Shown here piece after piece: positions 5,509-63,810 of a stretch of DNA of 64,000 bases. Source of the stretch: Stenotrophomonas sp. SY1 (GTDB lineage: Bacteria > Pseudomonadota > Gammaproteobacteria > Xanthomonadales > Xanthomonadaceae); contig NZ_JAJOYR010000001.1 of assembly GCF_021202945.1 (NCBI RefSeq), positions 248,001 through 312,000 on the forward strand, written 5' to 3'. The notes under the pieces were generated by a model. That model was not told where the DNA came from. It saw only the letters and a list, made by a program, of their open reading frames with translations, and did no database searches. Numbering within the stretch: position 1 is the first letter of the stretch; the number at the start of each line of letters is the position of its first letter. The position numbers and the translations under genes were made by a program.

Positions 5509-7689
5509 TCAGAACTTGATGGTGTGCGACAGCGACACCATCCGGCCGCGGCCGGAGAAGTAGTTCTGCCAGCCCGGCAGCTGCGACCAGGTCAACACGT
5601 ACTGCTTGTCGAACAGGTTCTCGATGCCCAGCGACAGTTCGCCGTAACGGCCGGTGTCATAGTTCACGCTCAGGTCCCACAGCGCGTAGCCGTAGGTGTC
5701 CTCTTCGTTGAGATAGACGCTGCCGTTGGCCGGATTGACGAAGGTCTCGCGCAGATCGCGGCTGAAGGTGCGGCTCACGCCGAGGGTGGCGTTGAGGTTG
5801 TCGGTCGGGGTCCAGGTCACCGAGGCGTTGGCCTTGTCCGGCGAGATGTCCAGGATGCCCATTTCCTTCTTCAGGCCCGAGCCCGGGTAGTACTGGGTCT
5901 GGCCACGGATGCGCGAGTACAGGAAGGTGGCCTTCCACTGCTCGTTGAAGGTCCAGGCGCTGTTGAGCTCGAAGCCTTCGATCTCCACCGGAGCGCGGGT
6001 GAGGATGAAGTCGTCGGTGGCCTTGTCGATGGTCAGGGTCGAGCCGAAGTCCGAGTTGGAGCGGTACACCGACGCGCCCACCTGGCCCTTGGCACCGCGC
6101 CAGTTGAAGCCGATTTCGCGGTTCTCGGTGATCAGCGGCTGCAGGTCGGCGATGCAGGACACGGCCTTGCAGGGGCTGTTGGCCTGGATGTTGCGCAGCG
6201 GGATGCCGACGTTGGCGATGCCGAAGCCTTCGGAGTACGAAGCAAACACCGACCAGGCATCGTTGATGCGCCAGATCGCGCCGAAGTTGGGCATGTTGGC
6301 CTTGTAGTCCATCTTGCCGCCCTGCACCGGGGTGTTGTCGCGGAACGCAACGGTGGTGTAGCTGTCGATCTCCAGCTCACCGTCTTCGCGACGGATGCCG
6401 GCATCCAGCGTCACCGGGCCGATGTCCCAGCTCAACTGCACGTACGGCGCGATGCTGGTGTACTTCATCGGCGGCACCCACAGGCGGTTGGTCAGGGCCA
6501 GGCGCTGCTCGGCGGTGTCTTCCACCAGGTCCAGGCCGCTGCGCAGGCGCAGGCCTTCAACCTTGAACAGGTCGCTGTAGGCGTAGCCGAAGCGCAGGCC
6601 CTTCTTCTCGCTGTTGATTTCCGACTGGTCCCAGATGCGCTCGGTGCCCGGCAGCATCGGCTTGACCAGCTGGCGGTCGTCGCCGTTCTCGGGCACGTAG
6701 CGCATGGCCTGCTCGGCCCAGTACGCATCCACGCTCAGGTCGCCGCCGAAGAAATCGGCGTTGGTGTACTTCACCGCGAACTGTTCGAAGTCGTTGAACT
6801 CGGCCAGCGAACCGGCGATGGAGCCCTTCTCGGCGGTGTTGGTGGTGGGCTTGGTGCAGCCATCGTCACCAGCGCGGCAGCCTTCCACGGGGATGTAGTT
6901 GTGCTTGCCGCCGATGTGGAAGTTGCTGTAGCTGGCCTGGATGCGCTGCATCTGGCCTTCGCCGAAGTTGTAGCCGCCCTTCAGGAACAGGTTCTTGCTG
7001 TACGAATCGGACAGCGAGCCGGAGGTGTTCAGGCCCACGCGGCGGCCGTCGCCGTCATAGGCGATGCCACGGTCGATATAGGCGCCGCTGATCAGGAAGT
7101 CGGCCGCTTCACCACGGTAGGTGTGGGTGATGCCGATCTTGGACTGGTCGCTGTTGTCCTTGAACTGGGTGCCGTAGCGGGTGTTGACGATGGTCTGGTG
7201 GCCATCCACCTCCGGGTTCTTGGACAGGTAGTTGATCACGCCACCACCGCCACCGATGCCTTCGGCAGCCGACGGACCATTGATGACCTCGATGCGGCCG
7301 ATCACGCCCATGTCGGTGAAGGTGCCGTTGCGGTTGCCTTCGCGCAGCGGCGAACCCTGCGGCACGCCGTCGAACAGGCGCAGCGCGATGCGGCCACGCA
7401 GGGTCTCACCGGAGCTGCTCATCGCCTGCGAGGATTCGGAATAGCCCGGCACCATGCGTGCGAGCACCGCGGTGGCGTCTTCGGTCAGGTTCAAGGTGCG
7501 CTGCACCTGCTCCTGGGTCACCAGGGTGACGGCGCCAGGCACCTTCTCGATGGCAACCGGCGTACGCGTGCCGGTGACCATGACCTGGTCCAGGTTTACT
7601 GCTTGGTCGTTGCTGTCCTGCGCAAAGGCCGGGCTCATTACGCTGGCGAGCAGTGCGGCGCTGATTGCAGCCGAAAGTGGCTTGATCAT
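5509..7689 (-). CDS. TonB-dependent outer-membrane receptor
   Basis: A 726-aa receptor with a signal peptide ending SPAFA at about residue 23, a TonB-box-like stretch (LDQVMVTGTR), a plug domain containing DGVPQGSP and IEVINGPSAAEGIGGGGGVINYLSK, a 22-strand type barrel, and a C-terminal Phe (HTIKF) as expected for Bam-inserted barrels. It would move a bulky ligand across the outer membrane using TonB energy. The plug resembles siderophore receptors, but no Fur box is seen upstream and the neighbours are sugar genes, so a carbohydrate ligand is as likely. A GGGGGAGAGGG Shine-Dalgarno tract precedes the ATG. Confidence 0.88.
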   Translation of the reverse strand: MIKPLSAAISAALLASVMSPAFAQDSNDQAVNLDQVMVTGTRTPVAIEKVPGAVTLVTQEQVQRTLNLTEDATAVLARMVPGYSESSQAMSSSGETLRGRIALRLFDGVPQGSPLREGNRNGTFTDMGVIGRIEVINGPSAAEGIGGGGGVINYLSKNPEVDGHQTIVNTRYGTQFKDNSDQSKIGITHTYRGEAADFLISGAYIDRGIAYDGDGRRVGLNTSGSLSDSYSKNLFLKGGYNFGEGQMQRIQASYSNFHIGGKHNYIPVEGCRAGDDGCTKPTTNTAEKGSIAGSLAEFNDFEQFAVKYTNADFFGGDLSVDAYWAEQAMRYVPENGDDRQLVKPMLPGTERIWDQSEINSEKKGLRFGYAYSDLFKVEGLRLRSGLDLVEDTAEQRLALTNRLWVPPMKYTSIAPYVQLSWDIGPVTLDAGIRREDGELEIDSYTTVAFRDNTPVQGGKMDYKANMPNFGAIWRINDAWSVFASYSEGFGIANVGIPLRNIQANSPCKAVSCIADLQPLITENREIGFNWRGAKGQVGASVYRSNSDFGSTLTIDKATDDFILTRAPVEIEGFELNSAWTFNEQWKATFLYSRIRGQTQYYPGSGLKKEMGILDISPDKANASVTWTPTDNLNATLGVSRTFSRDLRETFVNPANGSVYLNEEDTYGYALWDLSVNYDTGRYGELSLGIENLFDKQYVLTWSQLPGWQNYFSGRGRMVSLSHTIKF

Positions 7690-57469: not shown

Positions 57470-59071
57470 TCATTCCTCCGCAGCACGCCCGCGCACCTGC
57501 TCCCAATCCAGCCCAAACTTCGCCAGATACTTTCGCAGCCGATCCGCATCATTGGTGCTCGCGCGCTGTGTGCGTGACACCGCGAACAGCTCGCGTCCCG
57601 CCGCCGACAGCGAACGCGAACGCAGACACACGCGCACCACGTCCTCCAACTGCACGCGATCAAATCGATCCAGCTCCATCGCCGCATCGCCCATCAATGC
57701 AGTCAATGGCGATGCTTCAGCGCCGCCATGCCACTGCCGACGTAGGCGGCCAATCTCGGCATCCACCTCGTCGGTTCGGATGCGCCCGGCCATGGACAGC
57801 GTCGCCATGCGGACAATACTGGCGCCAAGGTCCCGGAAGTTGCCGCGCCAGGTGGCTTCAGTGCTGGTGGCAAACGCCAGATATCGCGCCCGTGCTTCCA
57901 CGTTGAAGCGCACGCGTTCGTGCTGGTCGCGTGACCAGCGCTCCAGTTCGAACTCCAGATTGGGTTCGATATCCTCGCTGCGCTCGGCCAGGCCGGGCAG
58001 CTGATACGTCCACAAGTTCAGCCGCGCCAGCAGGTCCTCGCGAAAACGACCCTGGCGGACATCATCCTGCAGGTCGCGGTTGGTACCGGCAATCAGCTGG
58101 AAGTCGCTTTCCACCTCGCGGTCGCTGCCGACCGGCAGGAAGCGCTTTTCTTCCAGGGCGCGCAACAGCATCGCCTGCTCGTCGGCACCCAGTTCGCCAA
58201 TCTCATCCAGGAACAGCAGGCCCTTGTCGGCCGAGCGCAGCAGGCCGGCGCGGTCGCTGCTGGCGCCGGTGTAGGCGCCTTTGGTGTGGCCGAACAGCGT
58301 GCTCATCGCGCCATCGCCACGCAGCGTGGCGCAGTTCACTTCGACGAAGCGGCCCGGCAACTGGTGCTTGTTCTTCTTCAGTTCGAATACGCGCTTGGCC
58401 AGCTGGCTCTTGCCGGCGCCGGTCGGTCCCATCAACAGCATCGGGGCGCGCGAGCGGGTGGCCACGGTTTCAATCTGCTCAATCATCCGGTTGAACGCCG
58501 GGTTGCGGGTGGCGATGCCGCTCTTGAGCAGGTCGCGGTCCTGTAGCTGTTGCTGGGCAAAGCGCTGGGCGATGTGGTCGTAGCGCGACAAGTCCAGGTC
58601 GATCACCGCGTAGCTGCCCGCATCGCCGCTGATCTGCTTGCGCGGCGGCGAGGTCTGCAACAGCCGGCCTGGGAAATGGCGGCTTTCGGTCAGCAGGAAC
58701 CAGCAGATCTGGGTGACGTGGGTGCCGGTGGTGATGTGGACATAGTAGTCCTCTTCATCCGGCCGGAATGGGTACTCGGCGAGGAAGTCGTGCAGCCGTG
58801 CATACACGCCTTCGAACTCCCACGGATCAACCAGGTAGTTGTCGTGCAGACGGACCTGCGACTCTGGCGACACCAGTGCCAGATCATCGCTGACCAGGCG
58901 GGCCAGCTTGCCGAAACGGCGCTCGTCCAGCAGCAGTTCCAACCGGTCGAGTTGAAAATCCTCATGCATGCCCAGGGCGACGCTTGGGCGCCACTTCTCC
59001 CAGCGGCCAGGGCCGCTGCCGGCATCGAGTTGGGTGCCGAGCATGCCGAAGACTACCTGTCGCTTGGACAT
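57470..59071 (-). CDS. rtcR: RtcR, sigma-54-dependent activator of the RNA-repair operon
   Basis: A 533-aa bacterial enhancer-binding protein. The N-terminal CARF-like sensory domain (residues 1 to about 180) has the family's VVFGMLGTQLDAG and YYVHITTGTHVTQICWFLLTESR. The AAA+ core carries GPTGAGKSQLAKR (Walker A), TKGAYTGASSDRAG (sigma-54-contacting GAFTGA-type loop) and LLFLDEIGELG (Walker B). A C-terminal DNA-binding region follows. Start 59071 has AGGA seven bases upstream; ATG 59077 sits directly on it. RtcR senses RNA-damage products and activates rtcBA; here the divergent operon it should control also contains rsr and the Y RNAs. Confidence 0.94.
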   Translation of the reverse strand: MSKRQVVFGMLGTQLDAGSGPGRWEKWRPSVALGMHEDFQLDRLELLLDERRFGKLARLVSDDLALVSPESQVRLHDNYLVDPWEFEGVYARLHDFLAEYPFRPDEEDYYVHITTGTHVTQICWFLLTESRHFPGRLLQTSPPRKQISGDAGSYAVIDLDLSRYDHIAQRFAQQQLQDRDLLKSGIATRNPAFNRMIEQIETVATRSRAPMLLMGPTGAGKSQLAKRVFELKKNKHQLPGRFVEVNCATLRGDGAMSTLFGHTKGAYTGASSDRAGLLRSADKGLLFLDEIGELGADEQAMLLRALEEKRFLPVGSDREVESDFQLIAGTNRDLQDDVRQGRFREDLLARLNLWTYQLPGLAERSEDIEPNLEFELERWSRDQHERVRFNVEARARYLAFATSTEATWRGNFRDLGASIVRMATLSMAGRIRTDEVDAEIGRLRRQWHGGAEASPLTALMGDAAMELDRFDRVQLEDVVRVCLRSRSLSAAGRELFAVSRTQRASTNDADRLRKYLAKFGLDWEQVRGRAAEE

Positions 59072-59162
59072 ATCCATTCCTATAAAAAGCGCTTCAAAAG
59101 TATACGAAATTTATTTTTCACGGTGCGTTGGGAGTGGCTGGAAATAGAAAAATATCTTTTAA

Positions 59163-59192: not shown

Positions 59193-59208
59193 TTGGCACG
59201 GGCATTGC
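59193..59208 (+). promoter_or_regulatory. Sigma-54 promoter of the rsr-Y RNA-rtcBA operon
   Basis: TTGGCACGGGCATTGC matches TGGCAC-N5-TTGC with the correct GG-to-GC spacing, about 50 bases upstream of the rsr start. It faces away from rtcR, as expected for an RtcR-dependent promoter. Confidence 0.92.
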
Positions 59209-59257: not shown

Positions 59258-60805
59258 ATGGCCAACGCAACCCTTTTCGCTTCCCTGCGTGGTGCGCTGC
59301 TGCCGAAGGCGCAGGCGCGCAACGAGGCCGGTGGACTGGCCTATGCACGTGACCCGCGCACGGCGTTGGCCGTGTTCGCAGCCACCGGCTGCCTCAACAG
59401 CACCTTCTACGGTGATGCCGAGACGCAGCTGGAGCAGGTGCTGGCGCTGTGCAACGGGGTCGATGCCGACTTCGTCGCCCGCACCGCGGTGTACGCGCAT
59501 ACCGTTGCCCACATGAAGGACATGCCGGCGTTGCTGCTGGCGACGCTGAGCGTGCGCGATGGCGCGGCATTCGCCGCCGCCTTCCCGCAGGTGATCGACA
59601 ACGGCCGCATGCTGCGCACGTTCGTGCAGATCATGCGCAGCGGCCAGGTTGGGCGTCGCTCGCTGGGCTCGTTGCCGAAGCGCATGCTTCGCCAGTGGCT
59701 GGAGCAGGCTTCGCCGAAGGCGATCATCCGCGCCGCGATCGGTCAGCAACCGTCGCTGGCCGACGTGATTCGCATGGTCCACCCGAAGCCGCAGGACGCT
59801 GCGCGCGAAGCGCTGTATGCCTGGGTGATCGGGCGGCCATACGACGAGGCGCTGTTGCCGGAGGAGTTGCAGGTCTACGAAGCGTTCAAGCGCGACCAGC
59901 GAGCTGCGTTGCCGGACCTGCCGTTCCAGTACTACACCGCGCTGCCGCTGGACACCGTGCAGTGGGCGACATTGGCACGCAATTCGTCATGGCAACAGCT
60001 GCGCATGAACCTCAACACCTTCGCGCGTCATGGGGTGTTCGAGGATCCGGCGATGGTGGAGGTGGTAGCAGCCAAGCTGCGTGATCCGCTGCTGATTGCG
60101 CGTTCGCGGGTGCTGCCTTACCAGCTGCTGATGGCCTATCACGCTGCCTCCGCGTTGCCGCGTCCGATCCTGGATGCGCTGCAGGATGCGATGGAAGTCG
60201 CTACCGCATCGGTGCCGACGGTGCAGGGCAAGGTGGTGGTCGCGGTGGACGTCTCCGGATCGATGCAGTCGCCGGTTACCGGCTATCGCAAGGGTGCCAC
60301 GACGGCTGCGCGCTGCGTGGACGTTGCGGCACTGATCGCGGCCTGCGTGCTGCGCGGTCATCCGCAGGCGGAAGTGCTGCCGTTTGATACGAAGGTGCGT
60401 CCACAGCAGTTGAACCCGCGTGACAGCGTGATGACCCTGGCGCGCCAGTTGGCCATCAATGGCGGCGGAACGGCGGTGAGCACGCCACTGGCGTATCTCA
60501 ACCGCAGGCGCGCGGAGGTGGATCTGCTGGTGCTGGTATCCGACAACGAGAGTTGGCGTGACACCCGTGGCAGCGGTGCGACCGCGACCATGCGCGAGTG
60601 GGCCGCGCTGAAGGCGCGTTGCCCGCAAGCACAACTGGTCTGCATCGACCTGCAGCCGGTGGCCACCAGTCAGACGGTGGAGCGTGAGGATGTGCTGCAC
60701 GTCGGTGGCTTCAGCGATGCGGTGTTCGAGCTGCTGGCCGATGCCAGCCTGCCGCCCGACCAGCGCCCGCGCTGGGTGGAGAGGATCACCGCCATGCCCT
60801 TGTAA
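59258..60805 (+). CDS. rsr: Rsr, bacterial Ro60 orthologue (TROVE plus vWA)
   Basis: A 515-aa ring-shaped RNA-binding protein. Residues 1 to about 310 are a TROVE HEAT-repeat ring (GGLAYARDPRTALAVFAATGCLNSTFYGDAE, RTAVYAHTVAHMKDMPALLLA, LRTFVQIMRSGQVGRRSLGS). From about 325 a von Willebrand A domain has an intact MIDAS (VVVAVDVSGSMQS). Ro60 proteins bind misfolded RNA ends in the ring and Y RNAs on the outside; bacterial Rsr links with exoribonucleases. AAGGAG lies seven bases before the ATG. The Y-RNA array follows directly and rtcBA is beyond it. Confidence 0.95.
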   Translation: MANATLFASLRGALLPKAQARNEAGGLAYARDPRTALAVFAATGCLNSTFYGDAETQLEQVLALCNGVDADFVARTAVYAHTVAHMKDMPALLLATLSVRDGAAFAAAFPQVIDNGRMLRTFVQIMRSGQVGRRSLGSLPKRMLRQWLEQASPKAIIRAAIGQQPSLADVIRMVHPKPQDAAREALYAWVIGRPYDEALLPEELQVYEAFKRDQRAALPDLPFQYYTALPLDTVQWATLARNSSWQQLRMNLNTFARHGVFEDPAMVEVVAAKLRDPLLIARSRVLPYQLLMAYHAASALPRPILDALQDAMEVATASVPTVQGKVVVAVDVSGSMQSPVTGYRKGATTAARCVDVAALIAACVLRGHPQAEVLPFDTKVRPQQLNPRDSVMTLARQLAINGGGTAVSTPLAYLNRRRAEVDLLVLVSDNESWRDTRGSGATATMREWAALKARCPQAQLVCIDLQPVATSQTVEREDVLHVGGFSDAVFELLADASLPPDQRPRWVERITAMPL

Positions 60806-60832: not shown

Positions 60833-60860
60833 GCCCGGCTGGCAATGGGGCCAGCCGGGC
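60833..60860 (+). promoter_or_regulatory. Hairpin between rsr and the Y-RNA array
   Basis: GCCCGGCTGG (60833-60842) pairs perfectly with CCAGCCGGGC (60851-60860), preceded by GACGAC/GTCGTC (60807-60824). There is no T-tail, so it more likely protects the rsr message after processing than terminates it. CATATGCATATG, a perfect palindrome, follows at 60877-60888. Confidence 0.6.
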
Positions 60861-60887
60861 CCGGACAACAGGATTTCATATGCATAT

Positions 60888-60970
60888 GGAAGAAGGCGGA
60901 TGCCGGTCTGACTACATCGATTACCCGGGCGCGAATCCGGGAGTCAGGCCAACCCTTGCCACCTGCTTCC
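60888..60970 (+). ncRNA. Y-RNA-like unit 0 (T-arm only)
   Basis: An 83-nt fold. GGAAG (60888-60892) pairs with CTTCC (60966-60970) and continues with AGG/CCT and GG/CC after single mismatches. GGTCTGACT (60905-60913) pairs with AGTCAGGCC (60942-60950). The tip is a T-arm-like hairpin CCCGG-GCGCGAAT-CCGGG (60924-60941). There is no D-arm. It has GATGCCGG...GACTAC where the other units have GAATGCC...GAACTAC, so it is the most divergent member. Probably a minimal Rsr-binding Y RNA. Confidence 0.7.
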
Positions 60971-60981
60971 ATCCCTTCAAT

Positions 60982-61153
60982 GTCGGTGTGCACGAATGCC
61001 GACGGAACTACAGCCTGTCACGCTCCAGGTCGCGGGTTCGAATCCCGCCCGCCGCAGCCATGCGTCGGTAGCTCAGTGGTTAGAGCAGGAACGCTGCACC
61101 GCCATCGTGGCGTTGCAGCGAAACGTTCCGTCACTCTTGTCATGCACAGCGGC
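60982..61153 (+). ncRNA. Y RNA unit 1 with permuted tRNA-like module (YrlA type)
   Basis: The closing stem GTCGGTGTGCA (60982-60992) pairs with TGCACAGCGGC (61143-61153) with one mismatch. The second stem GACGGAAC (61001-61008) pairs perfectly with GTTCCGTC (61125-61132). Inside is a tRNA-like module in permuted order: T-arm GCGGG-TTCGAAT-CCCGC (61032-61048), acceptor 3' strand CCGCCGC (61049-61055), loop AGCCAT, acceptor 5' strand GCGTCGG (61062-61068, six of seven pairs), TA, and D-arm GCTC-AGTGGTTA-GAGC (61071-61086). An extra hairpin CGCTGCA/TGCAGCG follows. The conserved GAATGCC...GGAACTAC lies in the Ro-binding region. Confidence 0.88.
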
Positions 61154-61196
61154 ACCCGTCGCAAAGCTTCATGCGGAAGCATGAGGTTGCTTCAAT

Positions 61197-61337
61197 GTCG
61201 GCACGCAGGAATGCCGAAGGAACTACAGCCATTGACGCTCCGTGTCGCGGGTTCGAATCCCGCCCATCGCCGCAACGCGGTGGTAGCTCAGTCCGGTAGA
61301 GCAGGATGTTCCTTCAACCCTCGTCGTGCGCGTCGGC
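61197..61337 (+). ncRNA. Y RNA unit 2 with permuted tRNA-like module (YrlA type)
   Basis: Closing stem GTCGGCACGCA (61197-61207) pairs with TGCGCGTCGGC (61327-61337), one mismatch. GAAGGAAC (61216-61223) pairs perfectly with GTTCCTTC (61308-61315). T-arm GCGGG-TTCGAAT-CCCGC is at 61247-61263, acceptor 3' strand CCATCGC at 61264-61270, loop CGCAAC and acceptor 5' strand GCGGTGG at 61277-61283 (seven pairs, one G-U). TA and D-arm GCTC-AGTCCGGTA-GAGC (61286-61302) complete it. This is the cleanest module: D- and T-loops have the residues that dock in real tRNA. Confidence 0.9.
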
Positions 61338-61357
61338 ACCCCCAGCAAGCGTTGCAT

Positions 61358-61480
61358 GCGGTGAATGCCGGTGGAACTACATTGGTAAGCCCTTCGGGGT
61401 CGTCCGGGTTCGAATCCCGGGAGCAACGTTGGGCCTCTGGCCTGATGTTGCTGAAAGGTTCCATCACCCTTTGTCACCGC
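61358..61480 (+). ncRNA. Y-RNA-like unit 3 (T-arm, no D-arm)
   Basis: Closing stem GCGGTGA (61358-61364) pairs perfectly with TCACCGC (61474-61480). GGTGGAAC (61370-61377) pairs with GTTCCATC (61458-61465) with one G-U. T-arm CCGGG-TTCGAAT-CCCGG is at 61404-61420, preceded by a GCCC-TTCG-GGGT hairpin. The acceptor-like GAGCAAC (61421-61427) pairs with GTTGCTG (61447-61453), but the D-arm is replaced by a GGCC-TCT-GGCC hairpin. CCTTTTAAG follows the closing stem. It ends the array 36 bases before rtcB. Confidence 0.8.
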
Positions 61481-61515
61481 ACCTTTTAAGATTTCGAAAT
61501 GACAGGAACATCATC

Positions 61516-62742
61516 ATGAGCAATATCAACTACAACGTCATCCAGCAGCCAGGTGCGGCGCCGATCAAGCTGTGGACGCGCGGCGTGCCGCTGGAAGACC
61601 AGGCCCGTGAGCAGTTGCAGAACATCGCGCGGCTGCCGTTCATCCACAAGTGGGTGGCGGTGATGCCGGACGTGCATCTGGGCAAGGGCGCGACCGTGGG
61701 GTCGGTGGTACCGACCATCGGCGCGATCATCCCGGCGGCAGTCGGCGTGGATATCGGCTGCGGCATGATCGCCACCCGTACCACGCTCACCGCCAGCGAT
61801 CTGCCGGACAACCTGTCGCAGCTGCGCAGCGCGATCGAACGTGCCGTGCCGCACGGCCGCAGCGTGGGCCGCGGCGGACGCGACAAGGGTAGCTGGGACA
61901 CGCCGCCGGAGCTGGCGATCGAAGGTTGGTCACAGCTGGTGGCCGACTTCGAGCTGATCTGCGAGCGCCATCCCAAGCTGAAGAACACCAACAACCTCAA
62001 GCACCTGGGAACGCTGGGGACGGGGAACCACTTCGTCGAGGTGTGCTTGGACGAGGAGCAGCGTGTGTGGTTCATGCTGCACTCCGGCTCGCGTGGCGTA
62101 GGCAATGCCATCGGCACCTACTTCATCGAACTGGCCAAGCAGGAAATGCGTCGCTGGATGATCAACCTGCCCGACCAGGATCTGGCTTACCTGCCCGAGG
62201 GCAGCGTGCATTACGGTGACTATGTATTCGCGGTGGACTGGGCGCAGCGCTTCGCGCGCATGAACCGCGAGATCATGATGCGCAACGTGGTCGCCGCGGC
62301 GCGCACGGTGATCGGCAAGCCGTTCCAGGCGCAGGCCGAGGCGGTCAACTGCCACCACAACTACGTCAACCGCGAGCACCACTTCGGCAAGGACGTGCTG
62401 GTTACCCGCAAGGGGGCGGTGAGTGCGCGCAAGGGCGAGATGGGCATCATTCCCGGCAGCATGGGGGCCAAGAGCTTCATCGTGCGCGGGCTGGGCAACG
62501 AGGACAGCTTCCACAGCTGTAGCCACGGCGCCGGCCGCGTGATGAGCCGCACCCAGGCGCGCAAGCTGATCAGCGTTGATGACCACATCAAGGCCACCGC
62601 GCACGTGGAATGCCGCAAGGATGCCGAGGTGGTGGACGAGTCGCCGGCCGCGTACAAGCCGATCGAGGCGGTGATGGAAGCGCAGCGCGACCTGGTGGAG
62701 ATCATGCACACCCTGCGCCAGGTGGTATGCGTTAAGGGATGA
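61516..62742 (+). CDS. rtcB: RNA-splicing ligase RtcB
   Basis: A 408-aa GTP- and Mn-dependent ligase that joins 2',3'-cyclic phosphate (or 3'-phosphate) RNA ends to 5'-OH ends, same length as E. coli RtcB. Metal-binding and catalytic blocks: MPDVHLGKGATVGSV, VGVDIGCGMIA, GTLGTGNHFVEV, LHSGSRGVGN, NCHHNYV and the guanylylated His in HSCSHGAGRVMSRTQA. It starts 36 bases after the Y-RNA array on the same strand and is followed by rtcA after a hairpin. Confidence 0.97.
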   Translation: MSNINYNVIQQPGAAPIKLWTRGVPLEDQAREQLQNIARLPFIHKWVAVMPDVHLGKGATVGSVVPTIGAIIPAAVGVDIGCGMIATRTTLTASDLPDNLSQLRSAIERAVPHGRSVGRGGRDKGSWDTPPELAIEGWSQLVADFELICERHPKLKNTNNLKHLGTLGTGNHFVEVCLDEEQRVWFMLHSGSRGVGNAIGTYFIELAKQEMRRWMINLPDQDLAYLPEGSVHYGDYVFAVDWAQRFARMNREIMMRNVVAAARTVIGKPFQAQAEAVNCHHNYVNREHHFGKDVLVTRKGAVSARKGEMGIIPGSMGAKSFIVRGLGNEDSFHSCSHGAGRVMSRTQARKLISVDDHIKATAHVECRKDAEVVDESPAAYKPIEAVMEAQRDLVEIMHTLRQVVCVKG

Positions 62743-62793: not shown

Positions 62794-63810
62794 ATGGACA
62801 TGATTGAGATCGATGGAACCCTGGGCGGGGGGCAGCTGCTGCGCTCCGCGCTTACCTTGAGCCTGTGCACCGGCATTGGCTTCACCATGCAGGACATCCG
62901 GGCCACGCGTGCGCGCCCGGGCTTGATGCGCCAGCACCTGACAGCAGTGAACGCTGCGGCGCGGGTCGGCAATGGAACGGCCGCTGGCGCGGCACTGGGT
63001 GCCACCACGCTGCGCTTCGTGCCCGGTGCGGTACAGGCCGGTGACTACCATTTCGCCATCGGCAGCGCCGGCTCGGCAACGCTGGTGTTGCAGACCCTGT
63101 TGCCTGCGTTGTGGCAGGCACCCGCGCCGTCTCGGCTGCGACTGGAAGGGGGGACGCACAATCCGCTGGCACCCAGCGCTGATTTCATCAGCGCGTGCTA
63201 TCTGCCGGCATTGGCGCGGATGGGCGTCCAGGTGAATTTGCAGTTGCACCAGTACGGTTTCCATCCGGCCGGAGGTGGTGTTCTGGAAGCGGCCGTGCTG
63301 CCGTGCGCGGCCTTGTCGCCATGCAGCTTCGACCAGCGTGGGCCGCTGCAGTCCGTGGAGGCGAGCGTGCTGATGTCCGGGCTGCCTGCGGCAATCGGTC
63401 AGCGTGAGCTGGATGTGCTGGCCAGCCGGCTGGGTGTCCCGGCGCATCCGCGTCAGATACGGATGGTGCGGCCGGCGTTGGGGCCGGGAAATGTGGCCGC
63501 AGTGACGGTGCAGCATGGAGATCATGTGGAACTGTTCGACAGCCACGGCGAGCGTGGCGTGTCGGCCGAACAGGTTGCCGGGCGACTGGCCGATGCGGTG
63601 CAGCAGTATCTGCGAGGCACGGCATGTGTTGGCGAGCACCTGTCCGACCAGTTGCTGCTGCCAATGGCATTGGCCGGCGCCGGCAGCTTCACCACACGGG
63701 CCATCAGTGAGCACCTGCGCAGCAATGCGCGGTTGATCGAGAAATTCCTGCCGGTGGAGTTCGACTGGCAGGCATGCGCTGACGGCTGGCAGGTAAGGGT
63801 CGCCCACTGA
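62794..63810 (+). CDS. rtcA: RNA 3'-terminal phosphate cyclase RtcA
   Basis: A 338-aa ATP-dependent cyclase that turns a 3'-phosphate RNA end into a 2',3'-cyclic phosphate, giving RtcB a fresh substrate. Seen: IDGTLGGGQLLRSALTLSL, RARPGLMRQHLTAVNA, RGPLQSVEA, and the nucleotidylated His in GEHLSDQLLLPMALA. Length matches E. coli RtcA. Last gene of the RtcR-controlled operon. Confidence 0.96.
   Translation: MDMIEIDGTLGGGQLLRSALTLSLCTGIGFTMQDIRATRARPGLMRQHLTAVNAAARVGNGTAAGAALGATTLRFVPGAVQAGDYHFAIGSAGSATLVLQTLLPALWQAPAPSRLRLEGGTHNPLAPSADFISACYLPALARMGVQVNLQLHQYGFHPAGGGVLEAAVLPCAALSPCSFDQRGPLQSVEASVLMSGLPAAIGQRELDVLASRLGVPAHPRQIRMVRPALGPGNVAAVTVQHGDHVELFDSHGERGVSAEQVAGRLADAVQQYLRGTACVGEHLSDQLLLPMALAGAGSFTTRAISEHLRSNARLIEKFLPVEFDWQACADGWQVRVAH

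What the first reader, a model, noticed from the sequence alone, without database searches (positions are those of the whole stretch)
60888..61480. Array of four Y-RNA-like units with circularly permuted tRNA-like modules between rsr and rtcB
Seen directly: between a Ro60 orthologue and RtcB, where no protein gene fits, the DNA holds tRNA pieces in the wrong order. A T-arm is followed by an acceptor 3' strand, a short loop, an acceptor 5' strand and then a D-arm. In units 1 and 2 the two acceptor strands pair across that loop, so the tRNA fold is complete but opened elsewhere, and outer stems close each unit. Known: bacterial YrlA RNAs near rsr/rtcBA carry a tRNA-like module and mimic tRNA. 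Inferred: this operon makes four different Y RNAs, more than the two (YrlA, YrlB) I know from enterobacteria, which could tether Rsr to different partners or act as decoys for tRNA enzymes.
Basis: partly seen in the sequence, partly recalled or inferred. Interest (0 to 1): 0.93.

Follow-up and report, generated by a model that had tools for sequence, protein, structure and literature searches.

The report
Array of four tRNA-mimicking Y RNAs
Between a Ro60-like gene and an RNA-repair ligase gene, this bacterium encodes a row of four small RNAs built around broken-and-rejoined tRNA shapes, two of them with an anticodon-like loop as well, which suggests they imitate whole tRNAs for enzymes that cut, mend or destroy tRNA.

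Summary
The observation largely holds. Window 60892-61481, between rsr and rtcB, holds four Y-RNA-like units, each closed by the same two-part stem (no shuffle of 500 gave two hits). Units 2 and 3 are circularly permuted tRNAs of YrlA type. That permutation is already known for YrlA (PMC11472068, passages).

Units 2 and 3, and relatives in Gamma- and Alphaproteobacteria and Planctomycetota, also carry a 3-bp, 7-nt arm where the anticodon arm belongs. Rfam's YrlA consensus lacks it (13-nt insertion). It pairs in 43 of 45 distinct segments with 11 different helices; the next best helix pairs in 20. ARAGORN calls no tRNA in 147 inner segments as they stand, 65 when each is joined to itself, none in reversed or shuffled controls. 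Unit 2 matches this genome's own tRNA-Asp at 35 of 40 bases from anticodon loop to acceptor.

Two or more units were found in 41 of 50 distinct loci. The likeliest role is a set of Rsr adaptors with tRNA-like heads. A bait role for anticodon nucleases is possible but untested. Expression and binding are unproven.

The parts
57470..59077 (-). rtcR, divergently transcribed sigma-54 activator with RtcR domain
   Evidence: Pfam RtcR 257.1 bits, Sigma54_activat 169.2 bits
59194..59208 (+). sigma-54 type promoter match TGGCAC-N5-TTGC upstream of rsr
   Evidence: Only exact match in the window, both strands; 0.42 expected by chance, 36 of 100 shuffles have at least one, so position counts more than the match
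59258..60805 (+). rsr, Ro60 orthologue
   Evidence: Pfam vWA_Ro60 57.6 bits; PDB 2nvo Rsr E 7.6e-27 over residues 15-489
60833..60860 (+). hairpin GCCCGGCUGGC-AAUGGG-GCCAGCCGGGC just after rsr, role unknown
   Evidence: Stem read by eye; core GGCAATGGGGCC is in 35 of 155 fetched loci, own-genome and duplicate loci included
60892..60966 (+). Unit 1: short Y-RNA-like unit, closing stem plus one T-arm-like hairpin (T loop degenerate here)
   Evidence: Alignment A3 of 7 sequences, 8 of 20 predicted pairs with both sides changed; fold z only -1.48
60988..61147 (+). Unit 2: YrlA-type, permuted tRNA module with anticodon-like arm and an extra hairpin
   Evidence: Rfam YrlA 37.7 bits, under cut-off; model R1 100.3 bits; fold z -3.66
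61012..61024 (+). Anticodon-like arm of unit 2: AGC-CUGUCAC-GCU
   Evidence: Loop identical to tRNA-Asp(GUC) loop of the same genome; not in the single-sequence minimum-energy fold
61032..61048 (+). T arm of unit 2
   Evidence: Fold; GCGGG-UUCGAAU-CCCGC
61049..61068 (+). Acceptor-like helix of unit 2, closed by a 4-nt loop
   Evidence: Fold, 7 pairs and one mismatch
61071..61086 (+). D arm of unit 2
   Evidence: Fold
61092..61120 (+). Extra hairpin of unit 2 between D arm and closing stem
   Evidence: Fold; by eye a hairpin is also there in L006, L028, L037
61203..61331 (+). Unit 3: YrlA-type, permuted tRNA module with anticodon-like arm
   Evidence: Rfam YrlA 66 bits, just under 69; model R1 127.9 bits, but it is the first row of the model; orthologue in L028 75.3 bits, above the cut-off; ARAGORN calls a tRNA only after rotation; fold z -1.88
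61227..61239 (+). Anticodon-like arm of unit 3: AGC-CAUUGAC-GCU (lacks U33)
   Evidence: not in the single-sequence fold
61247..61263 (+). T arm of unit 3
   Evidence: Fold and alignment A1
61264..61283 (+). Acceptor-like helix of unit 3, 7 pairs
61286..61302 (+). D arm of unit 3
61357..61481 (+). Unit 4: closing stem, short hairpin (61390-61399), T arm (61404-61420), acceptor-like hairpin (61422-61452), no D arm
   Evidence: Alignment A2 of 18 sequences, 8 of 24 pairs with both sides changed; fold z -4.91; Rfam YrlA 32.5 bits, under cut-off
61516..62742 (+). rtcB, RNA ligase
   Evidence: Pfam RtcB 427.7 bits
62794..63810 (+). rtcA, RNA 3'-terminal phosphate cyclase
   Evidence: Pfam RTC 239.8 bits

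Best explanation
The stretch encodes four noncoding Y RNAs of one RNA-repair operon, transcribed with rsr and rtcBA when RtcR is activated (inferred from the layout and from Salmonella). Each is held by Rsr through the same closing stem (inferred from the conserved stem and from known Y RNAs). The heads differ. Units 2 and 3 are tRNAs opened between the D arm and the anticodon arm, with the Rsr stem inserted at the opening and the acceptor stem sealed by a loop, so the elbow arms, acceptor helix and an anticodon-like arm are all kept (shown by sequence). Units 1 and 4 keep mainly the T arm. I think the array gives Rsr a set of adaptors whose heads are bound by enzymes that normally hold tRNA, such as PNPase, tRNA-modifying enzymes and perhaps anticodon nucleases, so that Rsr RNPs are brought to, or compete for, damaged tRNA while RtcB and RtcA mend it (inferred). 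The tRNA-like anatomy I hold at about 0.95, Rsr binding at about 0.85, the adaptor role at about 0.5, and a specific bait role of the anticodon-like arm at about 0.2.
For: Position between rsr and rtcB with divergent rtcR and a sigma-54 type site. Closing stem above chance and covarying: A1, 26 sequences, 33 pairs, 96.5% of 840 cells paired, 17 pairs and 115 cells changed on both sides against 12.5 and 34.8 in shuffles, 0 of 500 as high. Circular permutation: ARAGORN of 147 inner segments as they stand, 65 of 147 joined to themselves, 93 of 147 with linkers trimmed, and 0 of 147 reversed and 0 of 147 shuffled in both settings. Anticodon-like arm: pairs in 43 of 45 distinct segments with 11 helices, next best helix 20 of 45; at its register in 56 of 90 T+D units against at most 7 at eight other registers. 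Loops in 52 units: U33 in 44, A37 in 49, U35 in 46. Own tRNA-Asp matches unit 2 at 35 of 40 bases and is the best of this genome's tRNAs in 45 of 52 units with the loop left out. The unit model R1 also picks up tandem tRNA genes: in 19 of 21 loci checked (L135-L155) tRNA genes, mostly tRNA-Lys pairs, lie at the match, as expected if the head is a permuted tRNA. [quoted passage not shown]
Against: No expression, processing or binding data. All window units score under the Rfam YrlA cut-off. The lone-sequence minimum-energy folds of units 2 and 3 do not contain the anticodon-like arm, and that of unit 4 does not contain the inner closing helix; units 1 and 3 fold only slightly better than shuffles (z -1.48, 14 of 200 as good, and -1.88, 10 of 200). 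The arm's stem is 3 bp, not 5. Of the 90 T+D units about a third show no such arm. Unit 3's loop lacks U33 and matches no tRNA loop of this genome; only 20 of 52 units (7 of 29 loops) match one exactly, and dealing the anticodon columns anew gives 3.4 on average and 7 or more in 35 of 5000 trials, so exact matching beyond column composition is modest. Thirteen of 52 loops have A34, which among this genome's tRNAs occurs only in tRNA-Arg(ACG). In A2 the number of further pair types does not exceed shuffles (17 against 16.5, 245 of 500). In Salmonella no YrlA fragments were seen when tRNAs were cut (PMC7790460, passage); that this YrlA lacks the arm is my inference from the Rfam consensus.
Confidence: 0.6

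Rival explanations
1. Bait and sensor: the anticodon-like loops are cut by anticodon nucleases in place of real tRNAs, the ends with cyclic phosphate feed RtcR, and RtcB reseals them.
For: Seven distinct loops are identical to Lys, Asp, Glu, Asn, Arg or Met anticodon loops of this genome's tRNAs and 46 of 52 loops have U35; 11 of 50 loci carry two different loops in one array; RtcR is activated by anticodon-loop cleavage products (PMC7790460); [quoted passage not shown]
Against: No cut Y RNA was seen in the passages read; Salmonella YrlA was not cut. Stem of 3 bp; 22 of 29 loops match no tRNA loop of this genome; unit 3 lacks U33.
Confidence: 0.2
2. Cis-acting leader: the array, above all the last unit, regulates translation or stability of the rtcB mRNA, for example through Rsr binding, and is not needed as free RNA.
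For: 34 nt lie between unit 4 and the rtcB start; a unit of the V-T kind is the last one found in 23 of 50 distinct loci; its 5' strand GCGGUGAAUGC is nearly invariant in 18 sequences.
Against: Units 1-3 lie far upstream; the number found varies from none to 6 between the 50 loci; known Y RNAs act as free RNPs in Deinococcus (PMC7790460, passage).
Confidence: 0.15
3. Remnants of tandem tRNA genes with no function of their own.
For: Model R1 matches junctions of tandem tRNA genes at up to 59.2 bits (L136), and the Rfam YrlA model hits a tandem tRNA cluster of this genome at 31.9 and 28.4 bits, so such junctions are a plausible origin.
Against: Closing stems and arms are kept by paired changes over several genera of Gamma- and Alphaproteobacteria and within the other two kinds; units were found just downstream of rsr in 46 of 50 loci, the only place that was searched.
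Confidence: 0.03
4. The stretch is a protein gene (214-aa frame 60845-61489).
For: Open frame through the array, alignable in three near relatives.
Against: Broken by 2, 1 and 1 stops in L028, L006 and L037; paired changes follow the RNA structure.
Confidence: 0.01

Closest known systems
YrlA Y RNA (Rfam RF02553; Salmonella YrlA, PDB 6CU1)
   Same: Place beside rsr and rtcBA, closing stem with GAAUGC / UUGUC motifs, T, acceptor and D arms in the permuted order
   Different: Scores of the window units lie under the family cut-off; a 13-nt anticodon-like arm is inserted that the family consensus lacks
YrlB, the second Y RNA of the Salmonella rsr-yrlBA-rtcBA operon
   Same: A further Y RNA in the same operon (PMC7790460 and PMC9879122, passages)
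   Different: I could not compare sequences; no YrlB family came up in the Rfam scans
Deinococcus Y RNA, part of the Rsr-Y RNA-PNPase complex
   Same: Presumed tether of an Rsr (description in PMC7790460 and PMC8394870, passages)
   Different: PNPase binding not tested; four units of three kinds
Permuted tRNA genes (known to me from red algae and some archaea, recalled)
   Same: Circular order of the tRNA parts
   Different: Here the opening is closed by the Y stem and the acceptor ends are sealed, so no mature tRNA is expected

Membership tests
Bacterial Y RNA (Rsr-associated) | Encoded next to a Ro60 orthologue | tested here: met
Bacterial Y RNA (Rsr-associated) | Closing stem with internal loop joining 5' and 3' ends | tested here: met
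   All four units, paired changes
Bacterial Y RNA (Rsr-associated) | Bound by Rsr in the cell | not testable with these tools
   Needs co-purification
YrlA (RF02553) | T, acceptor and D arms in permuted order on the closing stem | tested here: met
   Units 2 and 3
YrlA (RF02553) | Same three arms in units 1 and 4 | tested here: not met
   No D arm in either; no acceptor helix in unit 1. They are not filed as YrlA.
YrlA (RF02553) | Rfam gathering score 69 bits | tested here: inconclusive
   Not reached by any window unit: 66, 37.7, 32.5 bits; reached by the orthologue of unit 3 in L028, 75.3. Hence units 2 and 3 are called YrlA-type, not Rfam members.
YrlA (RF02553) | Modified by tRNA enzymes, binds PNPase | not testable with these tools
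   Reported for YrlA in PMC8394870 (passages)
Functional tRNA gene | Contiguous tRNA with free acceptor end | tested here: not met
   ARAGORN 0 in the window and 0 of 147 segments as they stand

The most novel reading that the evidence does not exclude
Y-RNA arrays are libraries of whole-tRNA mimics, anticodon loop included, each opened at the D/anticodon border or inside the D loop, that serve as replaceable targets for anticodon nucleases: cut Y RNA would raise the alarm through RtcR and be resealed by RtcB.
Probability: 0.18. Interest if true: 0.92.

Novelty: new variant of a known kind. Interest (0 to 1): 0.7.

Why it matters
As far as I could read, the function of bacterial Y RNAs beside RNA-repair enzymes is open. 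If some carry an anticodon-like arm as well as the elbow arms and acceptor helix, the vague idea of a tRNA mimic becomes testable: which tRNA each imitates, and whether nucleases that cut that tRNA also bind or cut the Y RNA. It also warns that the Rfam YrlA model under-scores such units, and that a tRNA finder may not see permuted tRNAs unless the sequence is rotated.

Tried and rejected
Protein gene in the array: rejected, frame broken in relatives. tRNA pseudogenes: rejected, paired changes and permuted order. An alternative hairpin in the same place, GCCUG/CAGGU in the lone fold of unit 2, was rejected as the general structure because the best competing 3-bp helix pairs in only 20 of 45 segments. 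Reading ARAGORN's anticodon names as identities was rejected: they shift with the trimming. Counting Y RNAs by the R1 tally of the phylum search (261 of 398 genomes) was rejected: the listing was cut, and of the 21 loci L135-L155, 19 have ARAGORN tRNA genes at the match. The finder gave two or more units in L127-L134 and none in L135-L137; but it missed modules there, since L135 and L137 have no tRNA at the match and by eye hold permuted modules. Assigning the D-arm half of units to one tRNA failed: best matches are spread over 23 tRNAs.

Limits of the counts. The unit finder is my own heuristic, with a threshold of 15 and 16 later (17.5 for L127-L137); it misses some visible units (for example one in L012 and one in L020) and makes some false ones (for example L011 unit 2). 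It was run only downstream of rsr; of the four loci without a unit, L008 ends 93 nt after rsr. The script for the arm misses some arms seen (L035 unit 1, L051 unit 1), so 52 units and 35 loci are low counts. The 26 rows of A1 were chosen from 48 units that already showed the arm, so helix 3 is conditioned on pairing; less conditioned are all 90 T+D units; only segments with an 18-21 nt linker. A2 uses 18 of 22 listed candidates, A3 7 of 8. The tRNA comparisons use this genome's 45 distinct tRNAs only, also for units of other species. Of 165 distinct units, 147 gave an inner segment.

Not held, so not read: Chen 2014, Wang 2018, Sim and Wolin 2018, Burroughs and Aravind 2016.

Full report
What is there. 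The window ends with an RNA-repair operon: rtcR on the minus strand (57470-59077), and rsr (59258-60805), rtcB (61516-62742) and rtcA (62794-63810) on the plus strand, identified by Pfam and, for Rsr, by the structure 2nvo of an Rsr at E 7.6e-27. A sigma-54 type site lies at 59194-59208, upstream of rsr; such a match is expected 0.42 times in the window by chance, so only its place makes it credible. By Rsr identity the nearest named relatives are Stenotrophomonas humi, Xanthomonas chitinilytica and S. terrae, 85-86%.

The four units. A finder for the closing stem (outer helix, GAAUGC, inner helix, ACUAC, then the two complementary strands around UUGUC) gives four units at 60892-60966, 60988-61147, 61203-61331 and 61357-61481. 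They are the four best hits in the window, and no shuffle of 500 gave two. Rfam YrlA matches units 3, 2 and 4 with 66, 37.7 and 32.5 bits, all under the cut-off of 69, and not unit 1. The S. humi orthologue of unit 3 reaches 75.3 bits.

Three kinds of head. Units 2 and 3 hold T arm, acceptor-like helix closed by a loop, and D arm in permuted order. Unit 4 holds a short hairpin, a T arm and an acceptor-like hairpin but no D arm. Unit 1 holds only a T-arm-like hairpin, whose T loop is degenerate in this genome but has the motif UUCGA in the six relatives aligned. The same order of kinds recurs in L006, L028 and L037.

Structure is kept by paired changes. For 26 YrlA-type units, 96.5% of 840 cells pair, with 17 pairs and 115 cells changed on both sides; shuffles gave 12.5 and 34.8, and none of 500 reached the observed values. 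For 18 units of the last kind, 92.5% of 416 cells pair and 8 pairs changed on both sides (shuffles 4.3, 3 of 500 as high); the number of further pair types does not exceed shuffles. In that set the short hairpin is the weakest part: 81.5% paired and no both-side change in my structure, though RNAalifold's shifted version has one pair with such changes. For 7 units of the first kind, 8 of 20 predicted pairs changed on both sides.

The anticodon-like arm. Between ACUAC and the T arm, units 2 and 3 have AGC-(7 nt)-GCU followed by a 7-nt region like the tRNA variable region. Rfam's YrlA consensus has no such part; its alignments to units 2 and 3 show a 13-nt insertion there, the length of the arm. 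In 45 distinct segments with an 18-21 nt linker, this helix pairs in 43 with 11 different helices, and the next best of all 3-bp helices tried pairs in 20. Over all 90 units with T and D arms, the arm is found at this register in 56 and at eight neighbouring registers in at most 7. In the 52 units kept by that script, position 33 is U in 44, position 37 is A in 49 and position 35 is U in 46. Twenty of the 52 units, or 7 of 29 distinct loops, are identical to an anticodon loop of this genome's own tRNAs (41 loops). Shuffling letters within loops gave 0.22 on average and never 7 in 5000; dealing the anticodon columns anew gave 3.4 on average and 7 or more in 35 of 5000. So the loops are built like anticodon loops, but exact identity goes only modestly beyond that. 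Unit 2's loop CUGUCAC is that of tRNA-Asp(GUC); unit 3's loop CAUUGAC lacks U33 and matches none. Lone-sequence folds of units 2 and 3 do not show the arm.

The permutation tested. ARAGORN, which knows nothing of Y RNAs, calls no tRNA in 147 inner segments as transcribed. When each segment is joined to itself, so that the tRNA order is restored across the joint, it of 147; reversed and shuffled segments give 0 of 147 each. With trimmed linkers it of 147, and 0 of 147 in both controls over 4041 variants each. Unit 3 is called in both settings, unit 2 only with trimming, and there ARAGORN takes the extra hairpin or another part as anticodon arm. Unit 2 aligns with this genome's tRNA-Asp at 35 of 40 bases from the anticodon loop to the acceptor, and tRNA-Asp is the best match in 45 of 52 units even with the loop left out. 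Tandem tRNA genes also match model R1: of 21 loci checked, 19 have tRNA genes at the match, mostly neighbouring tRNA-Lys genes, at up to 59.2 bits. This fits an origin from the junction of two neighbouring tRNA genes; that origin is inference. In the other two of the 21, L135 and L137, no tRNA is called at the match and by eye there are permuted modules; that of L135 has a 5-bp arm UUCGA-CUCAUAA-UCGAG before its T arm.

Spread. In 395 genomes of the family, 33 have this Rsr at E <= 1e-50. Among 50 distinct loci (window included), 46 have at least one unit, 41 at least two, 29 at least three and 14 at least four; 35 have the anticodon-like arm and 11 have two different loops in one array. Named carriers of the arm outside Gammaproteobacteria are Rhizobium aethiopicum (L032) and Primorskyibacter aestuariivivens (L035), both Alphaproteobacteria, and a Planctomycetota MAG (L031) (the class of Rhizobium is recalled).

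How it may work. [quoted passage not shown] My preferred reading is a set of Rsr adaptors with tRNA-like heads; a bait role for units with an anticodon-like arm is the bolder version. Neither has been tested.

What is known already. The circular permutation of YrlA against tRNA is in print (PMC11472068, passages). Several Y RNAs per species, with at least one tRNA-like, is what I recall from Chen et al. 2014, which is not held. Searches of the held library listed no paper that I could recognise as describing an anticodon arm in a Y RNA; I judged by listings and by passages of six papers, so this is weak evidence of novelty.

Noticed in passing
window 60833-60860: A strong hairpin with loop AAUGGG sits just after the rsr stop codon; its core is in 35 of 155 fetched loci (duplicates included) and occurs twice in L012, L049, L050, L052 and L056. 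Role unknown.
   Followed up: partly
L135 1380-1700 (minus strand): Permuted tRNA modules without the usual GAAUGC stem motif; one has a 5-bp anticodon-like arm with loop CUCAUAA, and ARAGORN calls no tRNA there. Neighbouring genes were not examined.
   Followed up: partly
L136, L138-L155: The best cross-hits of the Y-unit model are tandem tRNA genes, in nearly every case neighbouring tRNA-Lys genes, which may hint at the origin of the Lys-like loops.
   Followed up: no
L015 6502-6650: Rfam calls a tRNA (40.3 bits) across the border of two neighbouring Y units, a false gene call that the permuted order would produce.
   Followed up: no
L015 unit 3 (6587-6717), L019 unit 3: D arms unlike the usual GCUC/GAGC: one like a class II tRNA (Ser), one like tRNA-Gln or -Glu, within the same arrays as ordinary ones.
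   Followed up: partly
L131 unit 2: AGC-UUCAGGU-GCU arm with the loop of tRNA-Leu(CAG) together with a D arm whose best match is also a tRNA-Leu, though weakly.
   Followed up: partly
L015 about 7016-7545: A stretch without found units, possibly an inserted gene, separates the last unit from the rest of the array.
   Followed up: no
window 60845-61489: A 214-aa frame runs through the whole RNA array and could be mis-annotated as a protein.
   Followed up: yes
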